Source of the DNA: a virus
IMG/VR virus record: IMGVR_UViG_3300031841_005340
Location: 1-22,690 of that record
DNA: 22,690 nt
Strand: one strand, 5' to 3'
Each line of letters begins with the position of its first letter. Within the stretch, counting starts at the first letter, position 1. A program made the translations under genes and the position numbers. This document shows positions 1,533 to 21,118 of the stretch, piece by piece. Below the pieces are notes generated by a model. That model did no database searches. It was not told where the DNA came from and worked only from the letters and a program-made list of their open reading frames with translations.

Positions 1533-1592
1533 ATGAAAATTACAAAACAACGTTTGAAAGAGATTATCGCAGAAGAGCTTACAAAAGCTGAG
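1533..1592 (+). repeat. imperfect direct repeat, copy 1 (leader-coding)
   Basis: This 60-base segment codes for the MKITKxRLKxIIAEELxKA leader and is repeated at 1886-1945. The two copies share an identical 16-base core, AGATTATCGCAGAAGA, at 1561-1576 and 1914-1929, while many third positions around it differ. That pattern suggests an old duplication kept by protein-level selection and not a recent slip. Confidence 0.75.
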
Positions 1593-1646
1593 AAAGCTAG
1601 AAAGAAAGAATTAGAAAAGGAACTTGACGACCTCAAACATAAATGA
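1533..1646 (+). CDS. 37-residue protein with MKITKxRLKxIIAEEL leader
   Basis: ATG at 1533 is preceded by GAGGGA with good spacing. The product is 37 residues, highly charged and predicted helical. The N-terminus MKITKQRLKEIIAEEL is almost the same as that of the protein starting at 1886. The rest is a Lys/Glu-rich helix. The ORF stops at TGA 1644-1646, directly followed in the same frame by an ATG and an 80-residue ORF. It is either an independent micro-protein, the leader part of a longer protein made by UGA readthrough, or the 5' part of a gene broken by a nonsense change. The I-A-E site within the leader fits a T4-type prohead-protease cleavage motif. Confidence 0.55.
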   Translation: MKITKQRLKEIIAEELTKAEKARKKELEKELDDLKHK

Positions 1647-1889
1647 ATGAAGGAAGGAAAGCTGAGTTCAGCTTTGCAGGAAAGATACGGAATTAGCGAA
1701 GAAAACGCTGTTGGAAAAGTCCTTTGGCATTCGCTAAACGAGAACGCACAGATTGGTGTTTATGATATGAAATTTGGCGATACAATCATCAGAAACTTGA
1801 CAGAATCTGATATTGAGCCAACCATTGAAGAGGGTCACGGTCACCCTGCTAAAAATGACGACGATCCAGAAAGAGGGAAAAAGAAATGA
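1647..1889 (+). CDS. unrecognised 80-residue acidic protein
   Basis: This 80-residue ORF is in the same frame as the 37-residue ORF before it; its ATG touches the preceding TGA (TGAATG). No Shine-Dalgarno site precedes 1647, so translation probably depends on termination-reinitiation at that junction or on readthrough. The body has a mixed alpha/beta look (KVLWHSLNENAQIGVYDMKF) and ends in a charged His/Asp/Lys tail. I do not recognise the family. The stop overlaps the next start as ATGA at 1886-1889. It may be the body of a protein whose targeting leader is the upstream ORF. Confidence 0.55.
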   Translation: MKEGKLSSALQERYGISEENAVGKVLWHSLNENAQIGVYDMKFGDTIIRNLTESDIEPTIEEGHGHPAKNDDDPERGKKK

Positions 1890-1945
1890 AAATAACAAAA
1901 GCGAGACTTAAGCAGATTATCGCAGAAGAACTTTCAAAGGCTCAA
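1886..1945 (+). repeat. imperfect direct repeat, copy 2 (leader-coding)
   Basis: This is the second copy of the leader-coding segment described at 1533-1592, with the identical 16-base core at 1914-1929. Confidence 0.75.
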
Positions 1946-2383
1946 GGCAATAAGGTCAACGAAAGTATCGATGTGGATACTCTTGAAAACCTTGAAGTCG
2001 CAATCAAGATGGCTTATGAAGAGATGACTACTCCAACAGATGTAGATCAAGTTTATGCTGGTACTGGGGAGCCTGTTTCAAAGGACCCACAAGATATGCA
2101 CGATAAAGCAGTTGAGTTCCTCAAAAGTGTTGTTGAAGATGTTGCTAGAGGCGAAATGCCAAGTTCGCCAAGAACAATAAATGAAGATGGGCACGATGAT
2201 GTGCCTTCTGCTGTTCGTGCAATGAAAACAATTATTGAAGATGCTGGTCAAATGCTACAAGCACTTGAACAAATGGACGGCTCTTTACCAACTTGGTGGA
2301 CAAACAAAATGGCTGTGTCTGCTTCCATGCTGAACAAAATGCGAGACTATCTTCTTGTCCCATCAGAAATGAATGAGCAGTGA
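1886..2383 (+). CDS. putative capsid-targeted protein with MKITKxRLKxIIAEEL leader
   Basis: This 165-residue, mostly helical and acidic protein starts with MKITKARLKQIIAEEL, an amphipathic basic helix. Its I-A-E motif matches the (I/L)-x-E cleavage sites used by T4 gp21 on capsid-targeting peptides. I do not recognise the body, which contains Asp/Glu-rich helical stretches (residues 25-80 and 105-140). The start overlaps the previous stop as ATGA, with AGAGGGAAA upstream. The stop TGA at 2381 has a following C, a weak termination context in E. coli, and the frame stays open for 60 more codons with a well-formed conserved-looking tail. It could be a packaged internal protein; this is inference from the leader only. 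Confidence 0.7.
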   Translation: MKITKARLKQIIAEELSKAQGNKVNESIDVDTLENLEVAIKMAYEEMTTPTDVDQVYAGTGEPVSKDPQDMHDKAVEFLKSVVEDVARGEMPSSPRTINEDGHDDVPSAVRAMKTIIEDAGQMLQALEQMDGSLPTWWTNKMAVSASMLNKMRDYLLVPSEMNEQ

Positions 2384-2566
2384 CCAGAAAAAGAAGAAGC
2401 TCAGTTGGGGCTTGGAGAAAAACTAAAACCATCCGATGGAGCAGGTGCTTATGTGGATGACTTTCGGAAGTCCAAGGCACCGCAATTCAAAGGAAAAAGC
2501 AAGAAGAAAAAACAACAAATGGCAATTGCCGCTTACCTAGATGCAAAAGATCAAAAAAAATCTTGA
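2384..2566 (+). CDS. in-frame continuation past TGA, PQFKGKSKKK tail module
   Basis: Sixty sense codons follow the TGA at 2381-2383 in the same frame and end at TGA 2564-2566. The product contains LGEKLKPSDGAGAYVDDF and then APQFKGKSKKKKQQMAIAAY, a basic tail that I believe recurs at the C-termini of proteins in aquatic phages (from memory, not searched). No ATG exists in the frame before the conserved part. A separate gene would need TTG at 2405 (53 residues) with only a poor purine-rich site upstream. The alternatives are UGA readthrough that adds this module to the 165-residue protein, or a recent nonsense change or sequence error. Codon use looks like real coding sequence. Confidence 0.5.
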   Translation, partial: PEKEEAQLGLGEKLKPSDGAGAYVDDFRKSKAPQFKGKSKKKKQQMAIAAYLDAKDQKKS

Positions 2567-2591
2567 CACACAGTTTCAAATCTAATATTCT
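2563..2591 (+). promoter_or_regulatory. sigma70-type promoter for the Mre11-Rad50 gene
   Basis: A perfect -35 box TTGACA (2563-2568) is followed, after exactly 17 bases, by TATTCT (2586-2591; 4 of 6 matches to TATAAT). The predicted start near 2598 leaves a leader of about 20 bases. That leader carries GAGGTG (2611-2616) just before the ATG at 2620. The -35 box overlaps the stop of the preceding frame. It is the best host-type promoter I see in the window and fits early or middle expression of a recombination gene. Confidence 0.65.
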
Positions 2592-2619
2592 ATTGACAGC
2601 ATTTTACAACGAGGTGTAA

Positions 2620-5600
2620 ATGAGATTTGCTCATATTGCTGATACGCACATACGAAATCTAAAGTATCACTTTGAATATAAAGAAGTATTCAAACAAATG
2701 TATAAAAAACTACGTCAACAAAAAGTGGACTGCATTGTTCATTGCGGAGATATTGCCCATACTAAAACCCAGATTTCACCAGAGTTTGTTGAGATGGCAA
2801 CCGACTTTTTCCGCAATCTTGGTGACATTGCGCCCACCTATATTATCTTGGGAAACCACGATGGTAATCTAAAGAATAGCAGTAGGCAAGATGCAATTAC
2901 GCCTATTGTTGAAGCTTTGGCGCACCCAAATGTTCACCTTCTAAAAGAATCTGGTGAAACAATTCTGAATGATTCCTTTGCACTAAATGTTTTATCAGTC
3001 TTTGATAAGGACAACTGGGTGGTTCCAACTAATTATGATAGGGTAAACATTGCCCTGTATCACGGTTCCATCAGCGGTTGTCAAACTGATATTGGATGGA
3101 CAATGGAGTTCGGTGAACATGACATCTCTATTTTTAATGATTTTGATTACGCTTTCCTTGGGGATATACACAAGACCAACCAAGCCCTCGACAAGCAAGG
3201 TAAAATCCGTTACGCAGGATCCACAGTCCAACAGAATTTTGGAGAAACGAACGACAAGGGATATCTGGTATGGGATGTAAAGGATAAAAACAACTTTACA
3301 TGCAAGCATCAAGTTTTACTAAATCCTAAGCCTTTTATTACGGTGGAACTAACACCCAAGGGCAAGCTGCCTAAAAGTCTAAATATAACCGAGGGTTGTA
3401 GACTTAGACTAGCCACAAACAACAATCTTCCTCTAGATGTGATGAGGAAGGCAATCGATGTTGCAAAAGCAAAATTCAAACCAGAATCAATTACATTTTT
3501 GAATCGGGCTAGTGGCAACTCTAGTGTAGACCACATGACGCACACGCTCATGAAAGAAGATCTTCGTGACATTGCAGTGCAAGAAGAGTTTATCAATGAG
3601 TACCTAAAAGACTACGAAGCTGATGACCAAACGCTGAATAAAGTCTATGAACTAAACAGAAAGTATAATACAATTGCAGAAGAAGAAGAGGAGATTACAA
3701 GAAACGTCAACTGGAACTTGAAAAAGTTTAGCTGGGACAATCTTTTCAATTATGGAAAAGGCAACTCGATTGACTTTACAAAACTAAATGGCGTCGTCGG
3801 TATTTTTGGTAAAAACTTCTCAGGTAAATCTTCAATCATCGATGGCTTGTTGTACACGATGTACAATTCAACCTCAAAGAATGAAAGGAAAAACCTAAAT
3901 GTTATTAATCAAAACAGAGACATTTGTTCTGCAAGTGTAGAAATATCTGTTGGTGATGATCTGTACAACATTTACAGAGAATCAGAAAAGTATTTGAAAA
4001 AACTAAAAGGAGAAGAAACACTTGAAGCTAAAACAAAAGCTGACTTCACTAAACATAATTTAGTGACGGAAGATACTGATGTTCTAAATGGCACAACAAG
4101 AAACGAAACAGATAAGAATATCAAAAAGGTTTTAGGAACACTAGAAGACTTCTTGATGACTTCAATGTCTTCTCAAATGGGATCTCTTTCATTTATCAAC
4201 GAAGGCTCTACAAGACGAAAAGAGATCTTGGCAAAGTTTCTTGACTTGGATATATTTGAAAAGAAATTCAAATTAGCTAAAGAAGACGCCGCTGATTTGC
4301 GTGGCGCACTAAAAACATTAGAGGGGAAAGAATACGATGAAGACATCAAAGCAGCACGAGAACTTTTAGAAAAAAACACTGAAAGAACAGAAGAGCAAGA
4401 AGCAGCATGTTCTGTGTACAAAGATAAGATAGAGGACCTTCGCAATAAAATTGAAACACTAACAAAAAAGATCGAGTCAATTCCGGCGAACATCATAGAT
4501 ATTGCAAAGGTTATGGAGCAAAGAGAAGACAAAGCTAATGCTCTAGAAAATATAATTGCTAGCATATCTGAAAAGAAAGATTTGCACAAACAAAAGCTAG
4601 ACCACTATCAAAAGATAATTCAATTCTTGGACAATTTTGATATTGATGAATTACAATTAAAAAAAGGTCTTATCAATGATAAAGAAAAAGAACTCGAAAG
4701 CATTATCTCAGAGATAAATACTGAGGAAAGGGAGCAAGAAGGAATTGAAAAGAAAGTCGCACTCCTATCAGAGGTCCCTTGTGGTTCTGAGTTTTCTCAT
4801 TGTAGGTTCATACGAGATGCTTATACGCATAAAAAACTTCTTCCAGAGAGTAAGAAGAAGATTGCCCTCCTCAACAACAACAAGACAAAAGTAGAAGAGG
4901 ATATTGACACTCTACAGCCTGATATTGTTGAAAGTCATTTAGACAAGTACAACAAGGTTGTTGAAAAAAAGAATGAGCTTTCAAACGAAATGGCTCGAAT
5001 GGAATTGGAAATAGAAAAAAGCAAGTCTAAAAAGGCTAGTCTAGAAAATGAAATAAAAGAACTGGAGGCAAAGATCAATGAGTACGAAGAGAATCGAGAA
5101 GTTATTGAAAATCTGGAAATTCTTTCAAGAGAGAAAAGAGAGACTACAGAAAGAATCGATAGAGAAAAACAAGAATACGAAGAATGCAGAAACGAAATCC
5201 TAGAGCTTTATAAGCAACATGGATCTCTAGAGCAGCGACTAAACAACTTAATTGAGCAGCAAGAAAACTTAGAAGACCTAAGAACCAAGTATACTGCTTA
5301 TGATTTGTTTATGCGCTGCATGCACTCTAATGGCATCTCTTATGATATCATCAAAAGAAGGTTACCGATTATCAATGATGAGGTATCAAAGGTTTTGGCT
5401 AATGTTGTTGACTTTGAAATCTTCTTCGAGAATGACAGCAACAAACTTGATATCTTTATCAAGCATCCCAAGCATGACCCGAGACCCATTGAGATGGGGT
5501 CTGGTGCCGAGAAAACAATTGCTGCAATGGCAATCAGACTAGCACTGCTTTCTGTGTCATCGTTGCCTAAATCTAATCTGTTTATTCTTGATGAACCAGC

Positions 5601-5769
5601 GACCGCACTTGACGCAGAAAACATGGAAGGCTTTGTTCGCATTGTGGATATGGTCAAAAACTATTACCAGATAGTTTTATTGATCTCGCATGTCGATAGC
5701 CTGAAGGACATTGCTGATACTACTATTGAAATTGAAAAGAACGAGGGATTCGCTTTTGTATCTCAGTAA
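2620..5769 (+). CDS. 47-46: fused Mre11-like nuclease and Rad50-like ATPase (gp47-gp46)
   Basis: One 1049-residue polypeptide contains both halves of the SbcCD/Mre11-Rad50 recombination nuclease. In T4 these are two proteins, gp47 and gp46. Residues 1 to about 330 are a calcineurin-like phosphoesterase with all metal-binding motifs: D8-x-H10, GD44, GNH80D81, H148 and GDIH184. A charged linker leads to the Rad50 part. Its Walker A is GKNFSGKSS (397-405), followed by long heptad-rich coiled coil (about 540-920). A hook region has Cys721 and Cys728 (CGSEFSHC), the signature is MGSGAEK (959-965), Walker B is LFILDEP (987-993) and the switch histidine is His1024. It should resect double-strand ends for recombination-dependent replication. 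GAGGTG lies 3 bases before the start, and a strong promoter lies upstream. No frameshift or stop interrupts the junction. Confidence 0.93.
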   Translation: MRFAHIADTHIRNLKYHFEYKEVFKQMYKKLRQQKVDCIVHCGDIAHTKTQISPEFVEMATDFFRNLGDIAPTYIILGNHDGNLKNSSRQDAITPIVEALAHPNVHLLKESGETILNDSFALNVLSVFDKDNWVVPTNYDRVNIALYHGSISGCQTDIGWTMEFGEHDISIFNDFDYAFLGDIHKTNQALDKQGKIRYAGSTVQQNFGETNDKGYLVWDVKDKNNFTCKHQVLLNPKPFITVELTPKGKLPKSLNITEGCRLRLATNNNLPLDVMRKAIDVAKAKFKPESITFLNRASGNSSVDHMTHTLMKEDLRDIAVQEEFINEYLKDYEADDQTLNKVYELNRKYNTIAEEEEEITRNVNWNLKKFSWDNLFNYGKGNSIDFTKLNGVVGIFGKNFSGKSSIIDGLLYTMYNSTSKNERKNLNVINQNRDICSASVEISVGDDLYNIYRESEKYLKKLKGEETLEAKTKADFTKHNLVTEDTDVLNGTTRNETDKNIKKVLGTLEDFLMTSMSSQMGSLSFINEGSTRRKEILAKFLDLDIFEKKFKLAKEDAADLRGALKTLEGKEYDEDIKAARELLEKNTERTEEQEAACSVYKDKIEDLRNKIETLTKKIESIPANIIDIAKVMEQREDKANALENIIASISEKKDLHKQKLDHYQKIIQFLDNFDIDELQLKKGLINDKEKELESIISEINTEEREQEGIEKKVALLSEVPCGSEFSHCRFIRDAYTHKKLLPESKKKIALLNNNKTKVEEDIDTLQPDIVESHLDKYNKVVEKKNELSNEMARMELEIEKSKSKKASLENEIKELEAKINEYEENREVIENLEILSREKRETTERIDREKQEYEECRNEILELYKQHGSLEQRLNNLIEQQENLEDLRTKYTAYDLFMRCMHSNGISYDIIKRRLPIINDEVSKVLANVVDFEIFFENDSNKLDIFIKHPKHDPRPIEMGSGAEKTIAAMAIRLALLSVSSLPKSNLFILDEPATALDAENMEGFVRIVDMVKNYYQIVLLISHVDSLKDIADTTIEIEKNEGFAFVSQ

Positions 5770-5795
5770 CTAATTACCTCAATAAGGAGGGTAAG

Positions 5796-5984
5796 ATGTT
5801 GAGACACGCATTAGATGGATTTTTATCAAAGATAGTATCAAGAAAACTTTTAGTATGGGGCACTGCCACAGGCTTGCTGGCTTTTGCAAATCTTAGTTCG
5901 AGTGATTGGGTTGCAATTAGTTTAGTTTATATTGGCTCCCAAGGCGCTGTGGATTTGGCGAAGGCATGGAAGCATGGGTCTTAA
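5796..5984 (+). CDS. small membrane protein, holin candidate
   Basis: This is a 62-residue protein with two hydrophobic segments (about residues 18-34 and 37-54) separated by a short polar turn, a basic N-terminus and a basic C-terminal end (AKAWKHGS). It has one of the strongest Shine-Dalgarno sites in the window, AAGGAGGG, about 7 bases before ATG. It leads a run of overlapping small membrane and coiled-coil genes. Size and topology fit class II holins, which permeabilise the inner membrane at lysis, but no endolysin is visible nearby, so lysis is only one reading. It could also be a virion or host-takeover membrane peptide. Confidence 0.7.
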   Translation: MLRHALDGFLSKIVSRKLLVWGTATGLLAFANLSSSDWVAISLVYIGSQGAVDLAKAWKHGS

Positions 5985-6150
5985 GGTGAAGCCACCATAC
6001 GTCCTAGCCGGTGGGCTGGGATATTTTGGTGCAGCCTTTCTGCTAAATGAGCCCTACAACATGATCTTGTGGCTTATTGCAGGTATGTTGTGTGGCTTGG
6101 CTGCTGCACAAATTATTATAGAAATATTCATGAAGGAAAAAGATGATTAG
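5974..6150 (+). CDS. small two-segment membrane protein
   Basis: I place the start at ATG 5974 (58 residues), which overlaps the preceding gene by 11 bases. The longer frame back to 5932 only reads antisense-looking residues inside that gene. The protein has a short basic N-terminus (MGLKVKPPY) and two membrane segments (about 9-26 and 31-51). It ends in a charged tail, MKEKDD. There is no strong Shine-Dalgarno site, so translation is probably coupled to the upstream gene. It may form a holin/antiholin-like pair with that gene; this is inferred from position and topology only. Confidence 0.65.
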   Translation: MGLKVKPPYVLAGGLGYFGAAFLLNEPYNMILWLIAGMLCGLAAAQIIIEIFMKEKDD

Positions 6151-6544
6151 TTACTTGAAAAAAGCAAAAGACTTTGTTGTAAAATATTGGAAAATCTTTG
6201 CTGCTGCTGTATATGGTATTGGCTTGTGGATTTATTTCAAAGGCAAAGTTGGCAATATAAAAGAAGTTATTAAGGTAAAAGAAGACAGCCACAAGAAACA
6301 ACTTGATGCAGTGCAAGAAGCACATAAGCAAGAAATCGCTTTGAGAGATGAAGCGCTGGCAGAGTACAATGCTGTTCTTGAGGCAATTCGGGCTGAGTAC
6401 AAAGAAAAGAAAATGCGACTTTCTAAAAAAAGAAAAGAGGAAGTTGCTAGAATTGTTGAAGAAAACAAAGGAAATCCAAGCGGATTGGCAAAAGAACTGT
6501 CAGAGAAGTTTGGCGTAACATATGTTGGGAGCGGAGAAGCGTGA
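6143..6544 (+). CDS. membrane-anchored coiled-coil protein, spanin-like
   Basis: This 133-residue protein has one N-terminal membrane segment (about residues 16-33) after a basic start, and a long Lys/Glu-rich coiled coil (about 35-115) ending in a short globular tail. The pattern (short inside, one anchor, periplasmic coil) is that of Rz-type inner-membrane spanins, which help disrupt the outer membrane in lysis of Gram-negative hosts. It overlaps the previous gene by 8 bases and the next by 4 (GTGA). No nested or adjacent lipoprotein partner (Rz1 type) with a lipobox Cys is visible. A general membrane-tethered coiled-coil protein remains possible. Confidence 0.65.
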   Translation: MISYLKKAKDFVVKYWKIFAAAVYGIGLWIYFKGKVGNIKEVIKVKEDSHKKQLDAVQEAHKQEIALRDEALAEYNAVLEAIRAEYKEKKMRLSKKRKEEVARIVEENKGNPSGLAKELSEKFGVTYVGSGEA

Positions 6545-7158
6545 AAGAACTACTAACAGAATGGCGAAAGTTTATCGCACTAAATGAAAAGCTAATGCTC
6601 AAACCCGGACCAAATGGCTGGGATAAGTATTGTGAACTAGTTGCAGAGGCTTATGCTAAGGCACCTAAGTTTGATCCTGCTGCTGCTAGTTCGTTCGAGG
6701 CAATGAAGCCATTTGTAGATAAGATGTTCAAGCGGATCGAAGGTGTTGTTGATGTTCAGTTTGTTCCAGAGCACCCATACGAAAATGCGGCAGAACTAAG
6801 ACAGGATGTCCAGCAAAATGGTGTCCTCAAGATTTCTACTCTTGATGCGGAACACGACATTTTCGACCCAGAAACAAATGCTAAGTTTAGAGCAATCCAC
6901 GATTATATGTCGCACATTCAGCGAGGCACTGAGTTCGATGCGAAAGGCGAGATTGCTTCTTATAATGCTCATTTACAAACAATGCCTCCTAAGTCTCACC
7001 CTGCTCTTTTCACAGAAGTGGTAGGTCAGGCTTGCTCGTTTATTGTAAATGGAGAGTTCCCAGAGCAGAAGATTGCTCTACTTCCCGGCTTTGACTACGA
7101 AAAGGTAGGGGTTGTGGAAGGCTACGACATTGTAAATAAGGAGTTAGTAAAGAAATGA
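6541..7158 (+). CDS. unrecognised His-rich protein with LxEWRKF leader
   Basis: This 205-residue protein starts with GTG at 6541, overlapping the previous stop. The first 16 residues (MKELLTEWRKFIALNE) form an amphipathic helix ending in L-N-E, and they resemble the leader of the next protein and T4 capsid-targeting peptides. The body has a dense set of possible metal ligands: HDYMSH (120-125), Glu137 in KGEIASYNAH, His144, His153 and Glu159 in FTEVVGQACSF. This looks like an enzyme core, possibly a helical metal-dependent fold, but I cannot name the family. If the leader directs it into the prohead, it would be injected with the DNA. The stop overlaps the next start as ATGA. Confidence 0.72.
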   Translation: MKELLTEWRKFIALNEKLMLKPGPNGWDKYCELVAEAYAKAPKFDPAAASSFEAMKPFVDKMFKRIEGVVDVQFVPEHPYENAAELRQDVQQNGVLKISTLDAEHDIFDPETNAKFRAIHDYMSHIQRGTEFDAKGEIASYNAHLQTMPPKSHPALFTEVVGQACSFIVNGEFPEQKIALLPGFDYEKVGVVEGYDIVNKELVKK

Positions 7159-7433
7159 AAAAGATGTTGAATGAGTGGAAGCAGTTCCTCAACGAAAATG
7201 AGGGCGAGGATAATCGTGTAAGAGAGATGACGCCTGCTGGCGATTTAGAATACTTTGAAATGATAATGGACAACGACGACTCGTACATTGTCCAGTATAA
7301 TCCATCAAACGGAGAAGCAATGGTCTATATGCACCACGATGCTGGAGGAGACCTTGCAGCCGCAGCCCTCAAGTATTTGCAAAAAGACGCTCCATACGAC
7401 CAAGAAAGATTCCCAGAACCAGAGGACGAGTAA
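7155..7433 (+). CDS. small acidic protein with LxEWKQF leader
   Basis: This is a 92-residue protein. The N-terminus MKKMLNEWKQFLNENE parallels the leader of the preceding gene (MKxxLxEWxxF) and contains L-N-E, a candidate prohead-protease site. The remainder is small, acidic and probably one alpha/beta domain (EYFEMIMDNDDSYIVQYNP, then MVYMHHDAGGD). I do not recognise it. Starts and stops overlap both neighbours (ATGA at 7155, TAATG at 7431). It is a candidate packaged internal protein or a small regulator. Confidence 0.62.
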   Translation: MKKMLNEWKQFLNENEGEDNRVREMTPAGDLEYFEMIMDNDDSYIVQYNPSNGEAMVYMHHDAGGDLAAAALKYLQKDAPYDQERFPEPEDE

Positions 7434-7876
7434 TGAAACAACTACTATCCATATTTTTAGTTATACTCTTTGCTTTCCCTGCTTGGGCGCAAGAGGGAGT
7501 TATAACTGAAATACAGAAAGGTCAACAAGCACCCTTTACTGGTGTCCTAATGGACCCAACGGCAGCAGCCAAGGTTCTCACCGACAAGAAGTATACAGTA
7601 GAGGAATGTCGCTTAGAGATAGACAGAGAACTAAAGCTGTTATCTGCACAACTGGAGCTAGACTTGCAGATTAGCGACATAAAATTGAAGTCTTCAACAA
7701 AAAAGTATGAGCAACTTTTAACCATAAAAGATGAAGAAATTGGCAGACTTCAAGAACTAGCCCTTGAATCGCCCAATGATTATTCTCACTGGTGGTTAGC
7801 TGGTGGAGTGATCGGTGGCATAATTATATCTGTGTCCGTATTTGCAATTGCGGTGGAGATAAAGAACAATGGCTAA
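7433..7876 (+). CDS. envelope protein with signal peptide and C-terminal anchor
   Basis: This is a 147-residue protein with a classic signal peptide (MKQLLSIFLVILFAFPAWA, cut after Ala19). A periplasmic region with helical heptads (about 55-110) follows, then one C-terminal membrane segment (about 119-142) ending in a short basic tail. The order export signal, coil, membrane anchor would hold it in the inner membrane facing the periplasm. A role in lysis (spanin-like) or superinfection exclusion is possible. There is no lipobox Cys. Its start overlaps the preceding stop by one base, and its end overlaps the fibre gene by 8. Confidence 0.68.
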   Translation: MKQLLSIFLVILFAFPAWAQEGVITEIQKGQQAPFTGVLMDPTAAAKVLTDKKYTVEECRLEIDRELKLLSAQLELDLQISDIKLKSSTKKYEQLLTIKDEEIGRLQELALESPNDYSHWWLAGGVIGGIIISVSVFAIAVEIKNNG

Positions 7877-8735
7877 AAGATTTAGAACCCTTGGGCAAAT
7901 TCAAAAATACATTCGTGTAAAAGAAGAGCCCTTTGATGGTACCGCTGCTAGGGGTGCAAATCAGCAAATCCAATATAATGATAATGGGATACGTGCAGGT
8001 ATACCCAATTTCACTTTTGACGGCACAGATCTACAAATAACGCAAGACACTAAACTCAAGTTTGGAACAAATGCTATCTCCGGTTCTAGTGAGGGCATTT
8101 TTCTGTCTGGCTCTAAAATCCAAATAGATGGGACACTGGAAGGGGCATCTCCTTTGAAAATCGGAGGAGAACTGCAATTTACATCTACGGGATCATCAGG
8201 GGCGTTTAACTTTGGTCCTAATAATGATGCAAAAATATTTTATGATGATAATGATACTCTTGTTGTTTCTGGATCTTCTACGGGTGGTCTTCATTTATCT
8301 GGTGCAGTTGTGCATGTGGAAAAACACCTAGCGGTAGGAGCCACGTCTGCCACTCATGGAATAACTTTGCCAGATAGAAGCGACACATCTGGTAAAGTAA
8401 AAGCAAATGCCTTTGTTTCCTATTCTTCCATACGATTCAAAAAGAATGTAGAGCCCTTAGAAAATGCAATCGATACCCTAAAAAAGCTAAATGGAGTTTC
8501 TTATGACTGGAAAGACACCGACAAAAAAGACTATGGCTTTATCGCAGAGGAAGTCGGCAAAGTTTTACCAGAAATTGTAGAATGGTCAGCGGATCCTGAG
8601 TATGCTAATAGCATGGACTATATACGCATTATCTCTTTTTTAGTCGAAGGGGTAAAAGAGCAAGATGAAAAAATAACAGATTTGCAAAATAAACTTGCAG
8701 ATATGAGTAAAAAGATAGACGAAATAAAAGTATAA
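7869..8735 (+). CDS. short fibre/spike with S74 intramolecular chaperone
   Basis: This 288-residue protein has a beta-rich, Gly/Ser/Asp-rich fibre region of fibre-repeat character (about 25-180, such as ANQQIQYNDNG and PNFTFDGTDLQIT). A C-terminal peptidase S74 domain follows (about 184-270). The S74 core shows SSIRFKKN with the expected Ser186/Lys191 dyad spacing, then DYGFIAEEVGKVLPEIV, the hallmark stretch of the family. A C-terminal coil follows (KEQDEKITDLQNKL). In known cases the chaperone trimerises the fibre and then cuts itself off before the catalytic Ser. This protein is short for a main tail fibre, so it may be a head or tail appendage. It starts 8 bases inside the previous gene. 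Confidence 0.85.
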   Translation: MAKRFRTLGQIQKYIRVKEEPFDGTAARGANQQIQYNDNGIRAGIPNFTFDGTDLQITQDTKLKFGTNAISGSSEGIFLSGSKIQIDGTLEGASPLKIGGELQFTSTGSSGAFNFGPNNDAKIFYDDNDTLVVSGSSTGGLHLSGAVVHVEKHLAVGATSATHGITLPDRSDTSGKVKANAFVSYSSIRFKKNVEPLENAIDTLKKLNGVSYDWKDTDKKDYGFIAEEVGKVLPEIVEWSADPEYANSMDYIRIISFLVEGVKEQDEKITDLQNKLADMSKKIDEIKV

Positions 8736-8744
8736 TCATTCAAT

Positions 8745-9155
8745 ATGAAAAAAGATCTAAATTATATCGCCAAGCTTGAGCAAGCAATTGCAAAGAAATA
8801 TGGCGAAGAAGCAATTCAAAATCCAAGGTCCACTTGGACTCAAGAAAAAGAACAAAAATATCTTGAAGAAATAAAACAAATATACAAACAAGAACTCCAA
8901 AGCAAGACTTCGGATGAGAAAATTGAAGCAAATGGTTTTTTTGTTTCAAAAAAACTACTTACTAACAAGGAAGATAGGACTTGCCCTACTTGCTTCGTTT
9001 ATTCTTTTGAACAGAAAGACGACGTTTACATGAATAAGTACGATTGCTGTCACCACTGTTACTTAAAATTCGTCGAGGGCAAAGAACAAAGGTGGCTAAA
9101 CATAGATAAAAGAGTAGAGTTTTTATCCAATTATTATAGTCGAGGAGAAGAATAA
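8745..9155 (+). CDS. zinc-ribbon protein of unknown role
   Basis: This is a 136-residue protein with a helical charged N-terminal half (1-60). The compact C-terminal zinc-binding module has C80-P-T-C83 and C101-C-H-H-C105, with CYLKFVEGKEQRW after it. The knuckle spacing resembles small zinc ribbons that bind nucleic acid or protein partners. I do not recognise a named family. There is no strong Shine-Dalgarno site; ATG lies 9 bases after the fibre stop. The stop overlaps the next ATG by one base (TAATG). Its place before the terminase genes suggests a packaging or late-gene role, which is weak inference. Confidence 0.7.
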   Translation: MKKDLNYIAKLEQAIAKKYGEEAIQNPRSTWTQEKEQKYLEEIKQIYKQELQSKTSDEKIEANGFFVSKKLLTNKEDRTCPTCFVYSFEQKDDVYMNKYDCCHHCYLKFVEGKEQRWLNIDKRVEFLSNYYSRGEE

Positions 9156-9754
9156 TGGCAACAGCTTTAGAAATTGTAAGAGGTATCTCTCAAGTGCTCG
9201 CTAACTCATATGATGGCGCACTAGATGAAAATGGCGATCCAATCAAGATTGGTCTGAGAAGAGAAGAGGAAGTAAAAATCACAGACAAGAGGGTCATGGA
9301 TGGCTTTGGGTGTACAATTGCTGGCAATCGCCTAAAGATTAGTTATCAGTCAGAATGCACACTCAAAGAAGTACACCAAGACAATAAATTTGAAAGTGAT
9401 ATTGCTTCTATGATTGAAAACATCAAAAAGTTTTTGACAAAAGAATATAAAAAAGTTACTGGCGAGACCCTCTCTCTTACCAAAGATGGAGAAATTGATA
9501 TCCTTGTTCAATCTATTTCTAGACAAAGAACAGATGTTTGTGCAACCCAACACTATAAAATTGGTGGCTTAGGTGATGTAGTAGGTGTAGAGGAAGTGGA
9601 TAGAAACAAGGACCCGCATATTAAGGATTTAGATTCAGCTATCAAAAACTTTATGCAGACAGCTAAAGATTCTTACACTGGTGCTAAAAAACCTAGCAAT
9701 TACTCCTCCAAGGATGAGGGTGGTCAGACTCTAAAGGATTTGTACAAAGTATGA
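9155..9754 (+). CDS. unrecognised 199-residue protein before the terminase genes
   Basis: This is a 199-residue soluble, mixed alpha/beta protein without membrane segments or Cys motifs. It starts MATALEIVRGISQVLANSYDG and ends in a Lys/Ser-rich tail (KKPSNYSSKDEGG). The central part has a strand-helix-strand look (CTIAGNRLKISYQSECTL, then an amphipathic helix with IKKFLTKEY). A GAGGAGAAG Shine-Dalgarno site lies inside the previous gene. It overlaps the next gene by 4 bases (ATGA). Co-translation with the next two genes suggests a link with packaging or head completion; no function can be read from the sequence. Confidence 0.7.
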   Translation: MATALEIVRGISQVLANSYDGALDENGDPIKIGLRREEEVKITDKRVMDGFGCTIAGNRLKISYQSECTLKEVHQDNKFESDIASMIENIKKFLTKEYKKVTGETLSLTKDGEIDILVQSISRQRTDVCATQHYKIGGLGDVVGVEEVDRNKDPHIKDLDSAIKNFMQTAKDSYTGAKKPSNYSSKDEGGQTLKDLYKV

Positions 9755-10212
9755 GCGATAAGCTGACTAGAAAAATGATCGAAGAAGACGTTAGGTCTTT
9801 TTTAGATAATTTTAAGTCCTCACTCAAAAGAGGTCAACAAACTAGCGCCACCAGCCAAGCTTCGCCATCCGGTGAAAAGGCAAAACCAAGTCCGGAGAAG
9901 AAAAAGAAGAAGAAGGGTAGTTCGCTCAAGCGCATTCCCGGTCCAGAACTTCAAAAGACACTAAATCAATTGAGAAATAAAGGCATTTCTGGTGAAAAAA
10001 TTGGAGCGTTGTTTGATAAAGCCGCTGACGAAATCTCTAAGGGGGCTGCTGCTGCCCCATCAATACGTCGTGATTTTGAACAAAAAGATAGACCACTAAT
10101 AAACATGATGAGAGATCAGGTGGTGGCTATACTAAATGGAAATTTTGCATCTCTTAAAGAGGGCAAAATTCACAATGGAACAATTGCTTTTTTCAAAGAG
10201 ATTATAAAATAA
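9751..10212 (+). CDS. possible small terminase subunit (position only)
   Basis: This 153-residue basic protein lies directly upstream of the large terminase, the place of gp16 in T4. An N-terminal helix (LTRKMIEEDVRSFLDNFKSS) leads to a low-complexity Lys/Pro/Ser linker with KKKKKKG (about 48-55), then a helical C-terminal region (about 65-150). The helix-linker-helix design is compatible with a small terminase that binds DNA through a basic part, but I see no clear helix-turn-helix and no sequence match to gp16 from memory. It could also be a head-completion or DNA-binding protein. The start overlaps the preceding stop as ATGA. Confidence 0.6.
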   Translation: MSDKLTRKMIEEDVRSFLDNFKSSLKRGQQTSATSQASPSGEKAKPSPEKKKKKKGSSLKRIPGPELQKTLNQLRNKGISGEKIGALFDKAADEISKGAAAAPSIRRDFEQKDRPLINMMRDQVVAILNGNFASLKEGKIHNGTIAFFKEIIK

Positions 10213-10227
10213 CAACAAGGTCGTGGA

Positions 10228-11811
10228 ATGGCTGGATATCAATTATCAAAAAAGCAAATAGTTCAAGAAATCATCAAGTGTGGTAAAGATCCCACACACT
10301 TCATAAATAATTATGTAAAAATATCACATCCTCTTGAAGGGCAAATACCTTTCAAGACCTTTGACTTCCAAGCAGACCTGCTGGAAGACTTCAATGATTA
10401 TCGTTTCAATATTGTGCTAAAAGCTAGACAGCTAGGCATCTCTACCATTGTCGCTGCTTACGTTGCTTGGATGATGGTCTTCCACAGGGACAAAAACATT
10501 CTTGTTATCGCCACTAAGTTTGGAACTGCAACCAACCTTGTAAAGAAGGTGAAAAGCATGATAAAAAACTTGCCTGAATGGATTCGCATCGCAGAGGTAT
10601 CAATTGATAACAGAGCATCATTTGAATTGAGTAATGGATCTCAAATCAAAGCTTCTTCAACTTCTGGAGATGCAGGTCGTTCGGAAGCTCTTTCGCTTCT
10701 TGTTGTTGATGAGGCAGCACACGTTGAGGGTTTAGATGAGCTTTGGACAGGTTTGTACCCTACACTGTCTACTGGTGGTCGTTGCATCGCACTTTCCACG
10801 CCAAACGGTGTTGGTAACTGGTTTCACCAAACTTACTCTGATGCTGAAGTCCAAAATAACGATTTTCATCCAACTATTCTTCCGTGGGATGTACATCCTG
10901 AAAGGGACAAAGCATGGTTTGAAAAAGAAACAAGAAACATGTCAAGAAGACAGATCGCACAAGAGCTTGAGTGCAACTTCAATACTTCGGGAGAATCGGT
11001 TATCCACCCAGACGACATTGTTAATATGGAAGAAAATACAATTTGTGAACCAAAATACAAAACTGGATTTGACAGAAATTTATGGATTTGGGAGCCATAT
11101 CAATCTGGCAATACTTATGTATTAGTGGCTGACGTAGCGAGAGGAGACGGTCGAGACCATTCTGCTTTCCACATTATAAACGCAGACACCATGGAGCAAG
11201 TTGCAGAATACCAAGGCAAGCCAAACTTAGAGATGTACGCCAGTTTGCTAAACCAGACTGGCAGAGAATACGGCGATTGCCTTCTTGTAGTTGAGAATAA
11301 CAACATTGGTTTTTCTGTACTAGAAAAGTTAACAAATGAGTATGAATATCCTAATCTATACTACTCGGTCAAGTCAACTCACGAATATGTGGAACAAGTT
11401 GTTGCAGAACATCAATCAAATACTGTAGCGGGTTTTACCACATCTATGAAGACGAGACCACTAATTATTGCTAAACTAGAGGAATTCGTAAGAAATCAAC
11501 TAATTACTTTGCGCTCGGTACGTCTCACTAATGAACTGAGGACTTTTATTTGGAACAATGGAAGAGCGCAAGCAATGAGAGGTTATAACGATGACCTCAC
11601 TATGAGTATTGCAATTGCTTGTTGGGTAAAAGATACTGCCCTAACAACAAACAGAAGAGCAATGGAATATAATAAAGCTTTTATTAGTTCCATGATCACA
11701 ACTAAGACATCGCTCAATACTAGCATACCGGGAATGAAAGGGTATAAAGAAGTGAAAGAGGGTGATAAAATAAAAAAGCAACAACAATTTGAATGGCTTT
11801 ACAAAGGATAA
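10228..11811 (+). CDS. 17: large terminase subunit (gp17-type TerL)
   Basis: This is a 527-residue DNA-packaging motor with both expected domains. ATPase: the Walker A region KARQLGIST (65-73), Walker B LLVVDEA with Asp161/Glu162, and the coupling motif LSTPNG (189-194). RNase H-fold nuclease: Asp302 in VADVARGDG, Glu356 in LLVVENNN, and Asp455/Asp456 in YNDDLTMS. It cuts concatemers and pumps DNA through the portal made by the next gene. The usual Walker A Lys (GKT) is Ile70-71 here, with Lys65/Arg67 upstream, a variation I know from other TerL proteins. It is shorter than T4 gp17 (610). It starts 15 bases after the previous stop with AAGGTCGTGGA upstream. The portal gene begins 5 bases downstream. 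Confidence 0.95.
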   Translation: MAGYQLSKKQIVQEIIKCGKDPTHFINNYVKISHPLEGQIPFKTFDFQADLLEDFNDYRFNIVLKARQLGISTIVAAYVAWMMVFHRDKNILVIATKFGTATNLVKKVKSMIKNLPEWIRIAEVSIDNRASFELSNGSQIKASSTSGDAGRSEALSLLVVDEAAHVEGLDELWTGLYPTLSTGGRCIALSTPNGVGNWFHQTYSDAEVQNNDFHPTILPWDVHPERDKAWFEKETRNMSRRQIAQELECNFNTSGESVIHPDDIVNMEENTICEPKYKTGFDRNLWIWEPYQSGNTYVLVADVARGDGRDHSAFHIINADTMEQVAEYQGKPNLEMYASLLNQTGREYGDCLLVVENNNIGFSVLEKLTNEYEYPNLYYSVKSTHEYVEQVVAEHQSNTVAGFTTSMKTRPLIIAKLEEFVRNQLITLRSVRLTNELRTFIWNNGRAQAMRGYNDDLTMSIAIACWVKDTALTTNRRAMEYNKAFISSMITTKTSLNTSIPGMKGYKEVKEGDKIKKQQQFEWLYKG

Positions 11812-15553: not shown

Positions 15554-16156
15554 ATGTCGAAAAAACTTTTGAGAGAATATTATGAACTTTGCGAGGGAGG
15601 TGTCTGTCAAGACCTTCTTACTGAGGCTGAAAAGAAGTTTGTGGCTAATGGTGGAATGATTCTCACTGGAAAGCTGCAAGAAGCCGAAGTCCAAAATGGC
15701 AACGGTAGAGTATACCCACAAAAGGTCCTGCGCCGTGAGATGCAAAATTATGACAAGCTTGTTAGAGAGAGAAGAGCATTGGGAGAATTAGACCACCCTG
15801 ACGATTCTGTGATCAACCTCAAGAACGCATCGCATCTTGTAACAGATGTTTGGTGGGACGGTAATTCAGTAATGGGGAAAGTCAAAGTTTTAGACACACC
15901 ATCTGGTCAAGTTCTTCGTTCTCTCGTGGATTCTGGAGTTTCTTTAGGTATCTCATCTAGAGGATTGGGATCTGTCTCTGAGGGAGCCAACGGCACAGTC
16001 ACAGTTCAAGAAGATTTTCAATTGATTTGTTTTGATTTTGTTTCTGAACCATCAACACCCGGAGCATATATGTCTCTTCAAGAGGGTGTTGAAAAACAAA
16101 TTTTTACCAAAGCAGATAGAATCAATCGTGCTTTGAATTATGTTCTGGAGGACTAA
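15554..16156 (+). CDS. 21: prohead maturation protease (gp21)
   Basis: This is a 200-residue serine protease of the T4 gp21/herpesvirus assemblin type (T4 gp21 is 212). Motifs are GELDHPDD with catalytic His81 and SLGISSRGLGSV with the nucleophile at Ser134/Ser135, followed by FDFVSEPSTPGAY, a family hallmark. It cuts scaffold, core proteins and the capsid N-terminus at (L/I)-x-E sites before DNA packaging. Its own N-terminus has L-R-E and L-C-E (residues 6-14), possible self-cleavage sites. GAGGAA precedes ATG by 7 bases. The next gene starts immediately after the stop. Confidence 0.93.
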   Translation: MSKKLLREYYELCEGGVCQDLLTEAEKKFVANGGMILTGKLQEAEVQNGNGRVYPQKVLRREMQNYDKLVRERRALGELDHPDDSVINLKNASHLVTDVWWDGNSVMGKVKVLDTPSGQVLRSLVDSGVSLGISSRGLGSVSEGANGTVTVQEDFQLICFDFVSEPSTPGAYMSLQEGVEKQIFTKADRINRALNYVLED

Positions 16157-16585
16157 ATGAAAAGGTCAGATCTGAAAAAGATAATAAAGCCAATTGTAAA
16201 AGAATGCATTCAAGAATCTCTTTTAGAAGACGGCGTTTTGTCTAAAGTAATTTCAGAGGTGGCAATGGGCTTGTCGTCATCAACGATTGTAGAACAAAAA
16301 CAGTTTGAACAGCCAAAGCAAGAATCTCTTTCCAATAGAAGAGAGTCTGAGGCTCTAGCAAACCTGAAAGAGCAAAGGCAAAAAATGTTAGATGCTATTG
16401 GCAAAGACTCAATGAATGGAGTCAATATTTTTGAGGGCACTGAACCTCTTTCTTCTTCCGGCGAAATTGGACCGGGAGGACCAAAAAACGCACTGAGTGG
16501 TGTAGATCCTAGAGATCCCGGTGTTGACATTTCCGATTTGGCGGGAATTTTTGGTGATACTTGGAAGGTGATAAAGAATGGCTAA
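16157..16585 (+). CDS. putative prohead-core protein
   Basis: This 142-residue protein begins with a basic amphipathic helix (MKRSDLKKIIKPIVKECIQE) and then has a Gln/Glu/Ser-rich, probably flexible, middle. Its C-terminal end is Gly/Pro/Asp-rich (GVDPRDPGVDISDLAGIFG). It has several (I/L)-x-E motifs, such as I-S-E near residue 34 and I-F-E near 93, so it could be a protease substrate like T4 core proteins. It starts at the base after the protease stop and overlaps the bS21 gene by 8 bases. A core or packaged-protein role is inferred; the family is not recognised. Confidence 0.68.
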   Translation: MKRSDLKKIIKPIVKECIQESLLEDGVLSKVISEVAMGLSSSTIVEQKQFEQPKQESLSNRRESEALANLKEQRQKMLDAIGKDSMNGVNIFEGTEPLSSSGEIGPGGPKNALSGVDPRDPGVDISDLAGIFGDTWKVIKNG

Positions 16586-19282: not shown

Positions 19283-21118
19283 ATGTCAGTTTTAGATAAA
19301 TTAACAGAAGGCATCGTTAATCGTAATCTCCAAAAGGAAGGTACTGCCCTGCTTAATAAGTGGGAAAAGACCGGCCTCCTTGAGGGATTAGATAACGATA
19401 ACACAAAGGCGTCTATGTCACGTCTTTTAGAGAACCAAGCGAAGGAACTTCTTCGTGAAAGTTCATCCATGGCAGCGGGAGACGTTCAAGGTTTCGCTGC
19501 TGTAGCATTCCCAATCGTTCGCCGTGTATTCGGTAGTTTGGTCGCTAATGACTTGGTATCAGTTCAGCCAATGAGCTTACCATCAGGTCTTATTTTCTTC
19601 CTTGATTTCACTTTGAGCAACGCTCGCTTGGATCAAGGACAAGACGCTTCGCTTTATGGCGGAGGAGTTGTTGGTTCACAACTTACAGGTGGTGTGGATT
19701 TGAGTCTTGCAGCAGCAGAGCGCAGCTTCTATGCACTTAACAATGGATACTCATCACCAACTGGATCTCAAGCACTTGCAAGCTTCACTGTTATTGCTTC
19801 TGGTGTTGTTGGCTCTGGAGTTTCTGATGACGTTGAAAGTTCATTGACCCCTGCTACACTTGGTGGAAAGACCACTTACTTGAGTGATCTTGTGCAGTAT
19901 GACCCAGACCTTGAAGGTAAGTCTGTTGTTGTAGCTACAACAACTTGTGCAAATCTTGATGGTCAGATCAATCGTAATGACTTCATAACGGTTGCTCTTA
20001 CTAGTTCCTTCGCCGCAGGGCGCTTGGTACGTCGCTTGACAACTGTTGCAGGTAGAAATGCCGCAAATGTCAACACTTCCGTCAACGGACTCGATTTGGG
20101 CAACACCGCTACAACCAGCATGTTGCTTGTTTTTGAATCCACTGCATCTGCTGGTACATCCACTATAACAAACGATCTAAGCGGTGCTATTGATATCCAT
20201 ATCCCAACCGCTGGAGCACCGGGAGTTGAGTTCGCTCAAGCCGATGCATTCCAGAATGTTGGTGCTGACGCTCTTGGAGCACTTGCTGGTACTTCCCCAT
20301 GGGCTCTTGAAGGTTCAAATGATGCTGGAGGAGCTTTCAACGGAAACGCAGTAGATGTCATGCCAGAAATCGACATCAAAGTTGATTCTGTCAGCGTAAC
20401 CGCAGTAACCAAGAAACTCAAGGCTAAGTGGACACCAGAACTTGGACAAGATCTCCAAGCTTACCACAACCTTGATGCAGAAGTTGAGCTTACAAGCATC
20501 CTCTCTGAGCAAATTGCTCTTGAGATCGACCGTGAGTTGCTCAATGATCTTGTAAAAGGTGCATCTGCTGCTTCTCTTCACTGGTCACGTCGTCCGGGTC
20601 AATTCCTGAACAGAGAGACTGGTGTTAAGATTACTAGTGCGACTGCTCCACCTGACTTCACAGGTACTGTGTCTGAATGGTACGAAACATTACTTGAAAC
20701 TATCAACGATGTATCGGCTCAAATCCACAGAAAGACACTCCGTGGCGGTGCAAACTTCTTGGTTTGTTCCCCAGAAGTTGCGAACATTCTTGAGTTCACT
20801 AGTGGTTTCAGAGCTTCTGTTACTGCTGATACCCCAAGAGGTTCCGCAGGTGCTGTAAAAGTTGGTCAGATTAGTAAGAAGTTCGACATTTATGTTGATC
20901 CTTACTTTATCAGAAACGTAGTTCTTGTTGGACGCAAGGGTGGAAGCTTCTTAGAAAGCGGATATGTGTACGCACCTTATGTGCCACTGCAAGTCACTCC
21001 TACCATCTTTGGTACGGAAGACTTCGTGCCTCGTAAGGGAGTCATGACTCGCTATGCGAAGAAGATGGTACGTCCTGATATGTACGGATTGGTTATCTGT
21101 CACAACCTTGTTGACTAA
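19283..21118 (+). CDS. 23: major capsid protein (gp23)
   Basis: This is a 611-residue HK97-fold major capsid protein of the T4 gp23 family. The helical N-terminal propeptide (1-59) ends in ELLRE, a good L-x-E site for gp21; the mature chain would start SSSMAAGDVQGF, followed by family hallmarks such as AFPIVRRVFGSLVANDLVSV and QPMSLPSGLIFFLDF. The end (VRPDMYGLVICHNLVD) is also typical. T4 gp23 is 521 residues; an Ala/Ser/Thr/Gly-rich insertion at about 120-360 accounts for the difference and may form a surface domain. AGGAG precedes the start. Codons are richer in C-ending and preferred types than nearby genes, as expected for the most abundant product. A strong terminator follows. Confidence 0.95.
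   Translation: MSVLDKLTEGIVNRNLQKEGTALLNKWEKTGLLEGLDNDNTKASMSRLLENQAKELLRESSSMAAGDVQGFAAVAFPIVRRVFGSLVANDLVSVQPMSLPSGLIFFLDFTLSNARLDQGQDASLYGGGVVGSQLTGGVDLSLAAAERSFYALNNGYSSPTGSQALASFTVIASGVVGSGVSDDVESSLTPATLGGKTTYLSDLVQYDPDLEGKSVVVATTTCANLDGQINRNDFITVALTSSFAAGRLVRRLTTVAGRNAANVNTSVNGLDLGNTATTSMLLVFESTASAGTSTITNDLSGAIDIHIPTAGAPGVEFAQADAFQNVGADALGALAGTSPWALEGSNDAGGAFNGNAVDVMPEIDIKVDSVSVTAVTKKLKAKWTPELGQDLQAYHNLDAEVELTSILSEQIALEIDRELLNDLVKGASAASLHWSRRPGQFLNRETGVKITSATAPPDFTGTVSEWYETLLETINDVSAQIHRKTLRGGANFLVCSPEVANILEFTSGFRASVTADTPRGSAGAVKVGQISKKFDIYVDPYFIRNVVLVGRKGGSFLESGYVYAPYVPLQVTPTIFGTEDFVPRKGVMTRYAKKMVRPDMYGLVICHNLVD

What the first reader, a model, noticed from the sequence alone, without database searches (positions are those of the whole stretch)
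1533..2383. Two leader types suggest a set of capsid-targeted, co-injected proteins
Seen: MKITKxRLKxIIAEEL opens proteins at 1533 and 1886, MKxxLxEWxxF opens those at 6541 and 7155, and a basic helix opens that at 16157. Most have I-x-E or L-x-E in the first 20 residues. Known: T4 internal proteins have short N-terminal capsid-targeting peptides (such as MKTYQEFIAE) cut by gp21 at (I/L)-x-E, and this phage codes gp21 (15554). Inference: these genes, lying outside the head operon, encode packaged proteins delivered with DNA, with leaders swapped onto different bodies.
Basis: partly seen in the sequence, partly recalled or inferred. Interest (0 to 1): 0.65.

Follow-up and report, generated by a model that had tools for sequence, protein, structure and literature searches.

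The report
Swappable leaders on predicted phage-injected proteins
A large group of mostly uncultured, apparently marine T4-like viruses puts one of two interchangeable short tags on the front of many unrelated proteins; the tags end at the cut motif expected of the virus's own head protease, so they probably load those proteins into the virus head for delivery into the next bacterium.

Summary
Leader A (MKITKxxLKxIIxEEL) and leader B (MKxLLxEWRKFLxE) each sit on many unrelated bodies in T4-like viral contigs. In 80 loci chosen only for gp21, 39 carry a leader; random viral contigs gave none. The leader is conserved as protein, while its codons are saturated. Leader A is separable: information falls to background after residue 22, where a second [ILVM]-x-E often sits. 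A and B are exchangeable: the same body carries A in one phage and B in another, including a relative of the window's 6541 gene. In the 1886 family, every domain start is directly preceded by [ILVM]-x-E, even between two fused domains. The window's gp21 and the conserved [LI]-x-E in gp23 supply the matching protease and specificity. AlphaFold makes the 6541 leader a low-confidence helix outside a confident domain.

So the leaders most likely work like T4 capsid-targeting propeptides. They are not detectably homologous to T4's. Packaging, cleavage and injection are inferred, not shown. Corrections: the ORF at 1533 encodes only 37 aa; 16157 is a fixed head-operon gene, not a swapped leader; 1886 may be a cleavable two-domain polyprotein.

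The parts
1533..1646 (+). 37-aa ORF, nearly all leader A (MKITKQRLKEIIAE|ELTKAEKARKKELEKELDDLKHK); short conserved tail
   Evidence: 97% identical in L214; homologs in L428 and L438
1647..1889 (+). 80-aa companion ORF without a leader; also follows the 1533 homolog in L438 and L428, and conserved in L172
1886..2383 (+). 165-aa leader-A protein with two domains, each preceded by a protease-type motif (VNE26|S and INE100|D)
1886..1963 (+). leader A of the 1886 protein (residues 1-26; sites IAE14 and VNE26)
2177..2185 (+). internal site I-N-E (residues 98-100) between domain 1 and domain 2; [ILM]-x-E is conserved here in 7 of 7 homologs
2405..2566 (+). small basic module (GAGAYVDDFRKSKAPQFKGKSKKKKQQMAIAAYL), here a separate ORF (TTG start) but fused to the C-terminus of the 1886 homologs in L438 and L172
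6541..7158 (+). 205-aa leader-B protein (GTG start); leader residues 1-16 (6541-6588), folded body from about residue 20
7155..7433 (+). 92-aa leader-B protein (MKKMLNEWKQFLNE|NEGED...)
15554..16156 (+). gp21-type prohead protease (Peptidase_S77), the proposed processing enzyme
16157..16585 (+). conserved head-operon gene with a leader-A-like N-terminus (MKRSDLKKIIKPIVKECIQE); probable core component, not a swapped leader
19283..21118 (+). gp23 major capsid protein, own predicted gp21 substrate
19451..19459 (+). predicted gp23 cleavage site L57-R-E59|S; [LI]-x-E in 24 of 24 homologs

Best explanation
The leaders are removable capsid-targeting propeptides. An N-terminal amphipathic helix (type A, 14-22 residues, or type B, about 14-16 residues) recruits each protein to the assembling prohead core. 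The phage's gp21-type protease then cuts after [IL]-x-E, removing the helix and leaving the cargo inside the head. The cargo probably enters the next host cell with the DNA, where at least some of it acts on the host or its defences. Unrelated cargo genes acquire, lose and exchange leaders, so the leader works as an address label. Some products, including 1886, carry further [IL]-x-E motifs between domains and may be cut into separate pieces. Shown here: the modular leaders, their exchangeability, protein-level conservation, the cut motif at leader and domain boundaries, and the matching protease. Inferred: recruitment, cleavage, packaging and injection.
For: (1) De novo N-terminal comparison found one or two leader clusters in nearly all of the 13 fetched T4-like or related contigs (not in G039), against 0-3 internal control pairs; the same test on T4 recovered the known IPII and IPIII leader plus gp61.1. 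(2) 436 leader proteins fall into 300 body clusters. (3) Same body, different leader: L177(A)/L216(B), L156(A)/L046(B), L194(A)/L034(B). In the window's 6541 family, 13 members carry B and L434 carries A. (4) Boundaries: in the 1886 family, domain 2 starts right after [ILM]-x-E in 7 of 7 homologs, whether it follows domain 1 or the leader directly, and domain 1 starts right after [LV]-x-E in 5 of 5; the background rate is 1.8% per position. (5) A second [ILVM]-x-E lies at residues 17-27 in 181 of 247 A proteins against 17% of control windows; after it, A/G/S are enriched (38% vs 22% and 19%) and conservation ends at residue 22. (6) gp23 homologs keep [LI]-x-E at the expected cut site, 24 of 24. 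(7) Peptidase S77 occurs in 27 of 36 leader contigs against 2 of 26 random ones; three of the large negatives also lack portal and terminase, so they look truncated. (8) Leader codons: pS 0.78, pN 0.22. (9) AlphaFold: 6541 leader pLDDT 51-60, lowest at 14-18; body 84-96. (10) Recognisable cargo includes ART-PolyVal, GNAT, HD_4, AAA_33 and Zeta-type kinases and an S-adenosylmethionine lyase; ART and GNAT domains are reported in injected polyvalent proteins (PMC5512222), and T4 Alt is an injected ART.
Against: No virion proteomics or N-terminal data exist for any of these proteins in what I could reach. Leader A does not match T4's sequence, and it is absent from T4, KVP40, Syn9, P-SSM2, HTVC008M, RM378 and S-TIM5. 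At the first site of leader A the residue after the cut is nearly always E, unlike gp23, so that site may be structural and only the second one cut. The stringent junction test is positive but modest (29 of 100 pairs vs 4-8, and only 5 of 18 body families). G039 has a T4-type portal and one leader-like gene but no detectable S77. Most cargo has no recognisable function. T4-type late promoters were not found, so timing is untested.
Confidence: 0.77

Rival explanations
1. The proteins are prohead core or DNA-condensing components: recruited and trimmed by gp21 as proposed, but acting in head assembly and never working in the host cell.
For: 16157 is a fixed head gene with a leader-like N-terminus. 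Some leader proteins are short and very basic (L440:1435-1947). In T4, gp22, gp67 and gp68 are core proteins (PMC9026906).
Against: Body diversity is very high (300 clusters) and patchy between phages, as in accessory rather than assembly genes. Enzymatic cargo (ADP-ribosyltransferase, acetyltransferase, HD, kinases) is not typical of scaffolds.
Confidence: 0.2
2. The leaders are docking helices for another partner, such as phage or host RNA polymerase or the replisome, and are not cleaved; [IL]-x-E is just part of an amphipathic helix.
For: Leader A would form an amphipathic helix, and charged helical termini are common docking elements. The near-invariant E15 after E14 is odd for a cut site.
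Against: Two dissimilar leaders exchange on one body and share little beyond a charged helix and [IL]-x-E. The motif tracks domain boundaries at variable spacing. The leader is strongly associated with S77-bearing contigs in the sampled data, within its limits.
Confidence: 0.12
3. The shared 5' ends reflect recent DNA recombination or a translation-level element rather than a functional peptide.
For: Leader genes often lie in tandem arrays, where unequal recombination could copy 5' ends.
Against: Synonymous sites are saturated (pS 0.78) while the peptide is conserved (pN 0.22).
Confidence: 0.01

Closest known systems
T4 internal proteins IPI, IPII, IPIII with capsid-targeting sequences (CTS), cleaved by gp21 (PMC9026906, PMC12373910)
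   Same: Short N-terminal helix-like leader starting MK; [IL]-x-E cut motif; S77 protease encoded; leader shared by bodies with no other similarity; patchy accessory genes.
   Different: Different leader sequences, not detectable in T4. Two exchangeable leader families in one phage. Up to 14 leader genes in one S77-bearing contig (G003) and 25 in G040, which has no S77, against three T4 IPs plus gp61.1. Multi-domain proteins with motif-delimited domains.
T4 Alt, injected ADP-ribosyltransferase
   Same: At least one leader-B protein has an ART-PolyVal domain (L216:7302-7832, E 6.6e-8).
   Different: Different ART family; Alt's N-terminus (MELITE) is shorter.
Polyvalent proteins (PMC5512222) and P1 Dar proteins (PMC12810830)
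   Same: ART and GNAT cargo domains, multi-domain architecture, predicted co-injection; DarA N-terminus is cleaved by the P1 prohead protease.
   Different: Here mostly short proteins, each with its own leader; possible cutting between domains by gp21 rather than by a built-in peptidase.
SPN3US/phiKZ ejection proteins (PMC7411985, PMC10052503; abstracts only)
   Same: Head proteins trimmed by a prohead protease, many of them ejected into the host.
   Different: No shared short swappable leader is described in the abstracts and passages I saw; the protease is only distantly related to gp21 (PMC9026906).

Membership tests
T4-type capsid-targeting sequence proteins (functional kind) | N-terminal leader shared by otherwise unrelated proteins of one phage | tested here: met
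T4-type capsid-targeting sequence proteins (functional kind) | Leader ends in the gp21 consensus (I/L)-x-E | tested here: met
   50 of 55 unselected leader-A proteins; 8 of 9 unselected leader-B proteins with [ILVM]-x-E
T4-type capsid-targeting sequence proteins (functional kind) | Phage encodes an S77 prohead protease with gp23 as substrate | tested here: met
   window gp21; gp23 site conserved 24 of 24; 27 of 36 leader contigs with S77
T4-type capsid-targeting sequence proteins (functional kind) | Propeptide of about 10-19 residues | tested here: inconclusive
   First site at 14 fits; the likelier second site is at 21-22, up to 26 in 1886
T4-type capsid-targeting sequence proteins (functional kind) | Protein present in virions with the leader removed | not testable with these tools
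   No virion mass spectrometry for a leader-bearing phage was found
T4 IP sequence family (homology) | Leader similar in sequence to MKTYQEFIAE | tested here: not met
   Leader-A profile has no match in T4; leader B resembles it only in length and the E-W/F-x-x-F/L-x-E pattern
Polyvalent proteins | Several disparate effector domains in one polypeptide | tested here: inconclusive
   1886 has two domains of unknown function; ART, GNAT, HD and kinase cargo occur singly

The most novel reading that the evidence does not exclude
These phages assemble modular effector polyproteins: [leader]-x-E-[domain 1]-x-E-[domain 2]-..., in which the prohead protease removes the leader and also separates the domains inside the head. 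One gene would then deliver several independent effectors, and new effectors arise by adding a domain behind an [IL]-x-E joint.
Probability: 0.3. Interest if true: 0.8.

Novelty: new variant of a known kind. Interest (0 to 1): 0.64.

Why it matters
Injected phage proteins are the first thing a host meets, but outside a few model phages they are hard to recognise because their bodies share no sequence. A recognisable address label turns this into a lookup: in 3.3 Mb of selected contigs it already marks about 300 mostly unknown body families as candidate injected effectors, including an S-adenosylmethionine lyase and an ADP-ribosyltransferase. The prediction is testable by standard virion proteomics in a cultured relative (Flavobacterium phage immuto carries at least two matches to the leader-A profile).

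Tried and rejected
Non-S77 explanation: the large leader contigs without S77 (G030, G036, G040) also lack a T4 portal and a terminase match, so they say nothing; G039 remains an exception. T4 late promoter upstream of leader genes: not found in these phages for leader genes, so uninformative. AlphaFold of 1886: mean pLDDT 46.5, not interpretable. Foldseek of the 6541 body against the PDB: no match below E 0.001. tblastn of a 22-aa leader against cultured phages: too short to report; replaced by a profile search. The loose junction test (131 of 225 vs about 10) is inflated by alignments that start inside the leader tail, so I rely on the strict version (29 of 100 vs 4-8). One wrong row (L440:1435-1947, a different leader gene) entered alignment A6 and was replaced in A7; A6 was not used. 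Recent DNA recombination was rejected on codon evidence. A RiPP-type leader peptide was considered and set aside because most bodies are proteins of about 60-600 aa, some with known enzyme domains; not tested further. Literature: no held paper contains the leader string MKITK in a phage context, and three text searches found no description of it; subscription papers and preprints are not held, so this does not prove absence.

Full report
WHAT IS THERE. The window is a 22.7-kb contig of a T4-like myovirus: Portal_T4 at 11817, S77 protease at 15554 and Gp23 at 19283. The 1533 ORF, however, is only 37 aa, and is followed by a separate 80-aa ORF at 1647. The 1533-1647 pair is conserved in L438 and L428. 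6541 uses a GTG start.

IS IT MORE THAN CHANCE. I compared the first 17 residues of all proteins within each of 17 genomes or pieces, leaving out pairs with homologous bodies and using internal windows as control. Most T4-like metagenomic contigs showed one or two recurrent leader groups (G040: 191 similar pairs vs 0 internal; G030: 70 vs 2; G029: 60 vs 0). The same blind procedure on phage T4 picked out IPII, IPIII and gp61.1 as one group, although T4 as a whole showed no excess of pairs over its internal control (10 vs 10). G039 showed no excess either. In gp21- and leader-selected contigs I counted 289 unique leader-A and 57 leader-B starts, with none in 80 random viral loci (0.73 Mb) and none in reversed sequence. 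Because part of that set was chosen by a leader pattern, the unbiased figure comes from the 80 loci chosen only for gp21: 39 carry at least one leader, and among 55 proteins matched on residues 1-9 alone, residue 14 is E in 54 and [IL]12-x-E14 is present in 50.

THE LEADER IS A SEPARATE, PROTEIN-LEVEL MODULE. The 436 leader proteins fall into 300 body clusters, 257 of them single. Leader codons differ at saturated synonymous level (pS 0.78) with few replacements (pN 0.22), whereas unrelated bodies give 0.74 and 0.72. Position-by-position information in leader A is high to residue 16, weak to 22 and at background from 23-24. AlphaFold of 6541 with 14 sequences gives a confident body (pLDDT 84-96) and a poorly placed N-terminal helix (51-60), with the lowest values at residues 14-18, where the LNE16 site lies. 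The body has no PDB match but is related to a domain inside larger leaderless proteins of Mycobacterium and Gordonia phages.

THE TWO LEADER TYPES ARE INTERCHANGEABLE. In three body families one phage has leader A and another has leader B: L177/L216, L156/L046 and L194/L034. In the first two, similarity resumes within a few residues after position 14, e.g. MKITRRQLRKIISE|ALELDIEEGDV against MKKLLTEWRKYLSE|IKLDIKVGDV. In the window's own 6541 family, 13 members carry B leaders and L434 carries an A leader on the same body. A and B genes also alternate in the same gene arrays, for example G003 31937-35882 and G030 2165-11331. What A and B have in common is little more than MK, an amphipathic charged stretch and [IL]-x-E.

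THE CUT MOTIF SITS AT BOUNDARIES. In leader A a second [ILVM]-x-E occurs at residues 17-27 in 181 of 247 proteins, against 17% of control windows, mostly ending at 21 or 22; the next residue is A, G or S in 38%, against 22% background and 19% after the same motif in bodies. In the 1886 family the second domain (DGHxDVPSA...) is directly preceded by INE, LNE, INE, IQE, MQE, LDE or LNE in all seven homologs, whether it follows domain 1 or is attached directly to the leader. Domain 1 is preceded by VNE, LNE, LDE, LKE or LNE in five contexts of different length. The chance of this motif at any given position is 1.8%; relatedness makes the cases partly dependent. Across all leader proteins, a strict test of homology starts (both beyond residue 18, different upstream lengths) finds the motif within 4 aa in 29 of 100 pairs against 4-8 at shifted positions, but in only 5 of 18 body families. 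The effect is real but not universal. Five leader proteins also contain an internal copy of the leader, as expected if whole leader genes fuse.

THE PROTEASE. gp23 of the window and 24 of 24 homologs have [LI]-x-E followed mostly by A or S in the region where T4 gp23 is cut after residue 65 (FLTE|A in the T4 sequence; the T4 site is from established knowledge). So this group's gp21 very probably has the T4 specificity. S77 is found in 27 of 36 leader contigs and 2 of 26 random ones (Fisher p 9e-8). This partly reflects lineage, because the random set covers all habitats and phage types. Of the large negatives, G030, G036 and G040 also lack portal and terminase and look truncated; G039 has a T4 portal and one leader-like gene without S77.

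WHAT THE CARGO IS. Most bodies match nothing. Those that do are ADP-ribosyltransferase (L216:7302-7832), GNAT acetyltransferase (L146:2117-2833), HD_4 (L177:1322-2263), AAA_33 kinase (L170:4267-4986), Zeta-toxin-like kinase (L168:8194-9843), and, in the pooled scans, an S-adenosylmethionine lyase, pentapeptide repeats, leucine-rich repeats and YkuD. ARTs and GNATs are listed among injected polyvalent effectors (PMC5512222), and T4 Ip1-3 inhibit GmrSD nucleases while sharing only their leader (PMC12373910). I did not test enrichment against non-leader genes.

DISTRIBUTION. The leader-A profile finds nothing in T4, KVP40, Syn9, P-SSM2, HTVC008M, RM378 and S-TIM5, two places in Flavobacterium phage immuto (E 3e-7 and 2e-3), and weak single places in Bellamy and Mel-JY01. 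The system is therefore largely hidden in uncultured phages, with immuto the practical model. That the source is marine is inferred from the related cultured phages and is not recorded for the window.

ASSESSMENT. What remains unproven is everything that needs a virion: packaging, cleavage and injection. I file it as a new variant of the T4 capsid-targeting strategy, working like it but without detectable leader homology. The most novel possibility, supported in the window by the VNE26 and INE100 joints of 1886, is that some genes encode cleavable effector polyproteins.

Noticed in passing
window 2405-2566: Basic module GAGAYVDDFRKSKAPQFKGKSKKKKQQMAIAAYL is a separate TTG-start ORF here but the C-terminus of the 1886 homologs in L438 and L172; a frame change separates it in the window.
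   Followed up: partly
window 2620-5769: SbcD (metallophosphoesterase) and SbcC (AAA/SMC) are fused in one 1049-aa polypeptide; in T4 they are separate genes 47 and 46.
   Followed up: partly
window 7869-8735: Peptidase_S74 (intramolecular chaperone) domain at the end of a short putative fibre protein, just downstream of the leader genes.
   Followed up: partly
G040 (pieces L266-L270) about 34.6-72 kb: A block of about 40 genes in which most start with leader A or a third type, M-x-LRKYIRxIL-x-E; 36 proteins of the contig form one N-terminal similarity group despite mostly unrelated bodies. No head genes were detected on this contig.
   Followed up: partly
L289 (T4) 18966-19130: T4 gp61.1 starts MKTFKEFIKE, like the IP leaders, suggesting it too may be a packaged internal protein.
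   Followed up: no
L464:1225-1833 (Gordonia phage Skog gp167): By eye, the gene after the 6541-domain homolog has an ADP-ribosyltransferase-like tail (DGIITHD...GEIVD); no Pfam match at E 0.01.
   Followed up: partly
window 7433-7876: Protein with an N-terminal signal peptide (MKQLLSIFLVILFAFPAWAQ) and a C-terminal hydrophobic segment; possibly a spanin or envelope protein.
   Followed up: no
L438, ORF carrying the 1533 homolog: The 1533 peptide occurs as the C-terminal end of a 184-aa ORF in a relative, i.e. a leader-like segment at a C-terminus.
   Followed up: no
window 19283-21118: gp23 is 611 aa, with extra sequence between about residues 110 and 350 compared with T4's 521 aa; a possible inserted surface domain.
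   Followed up: no
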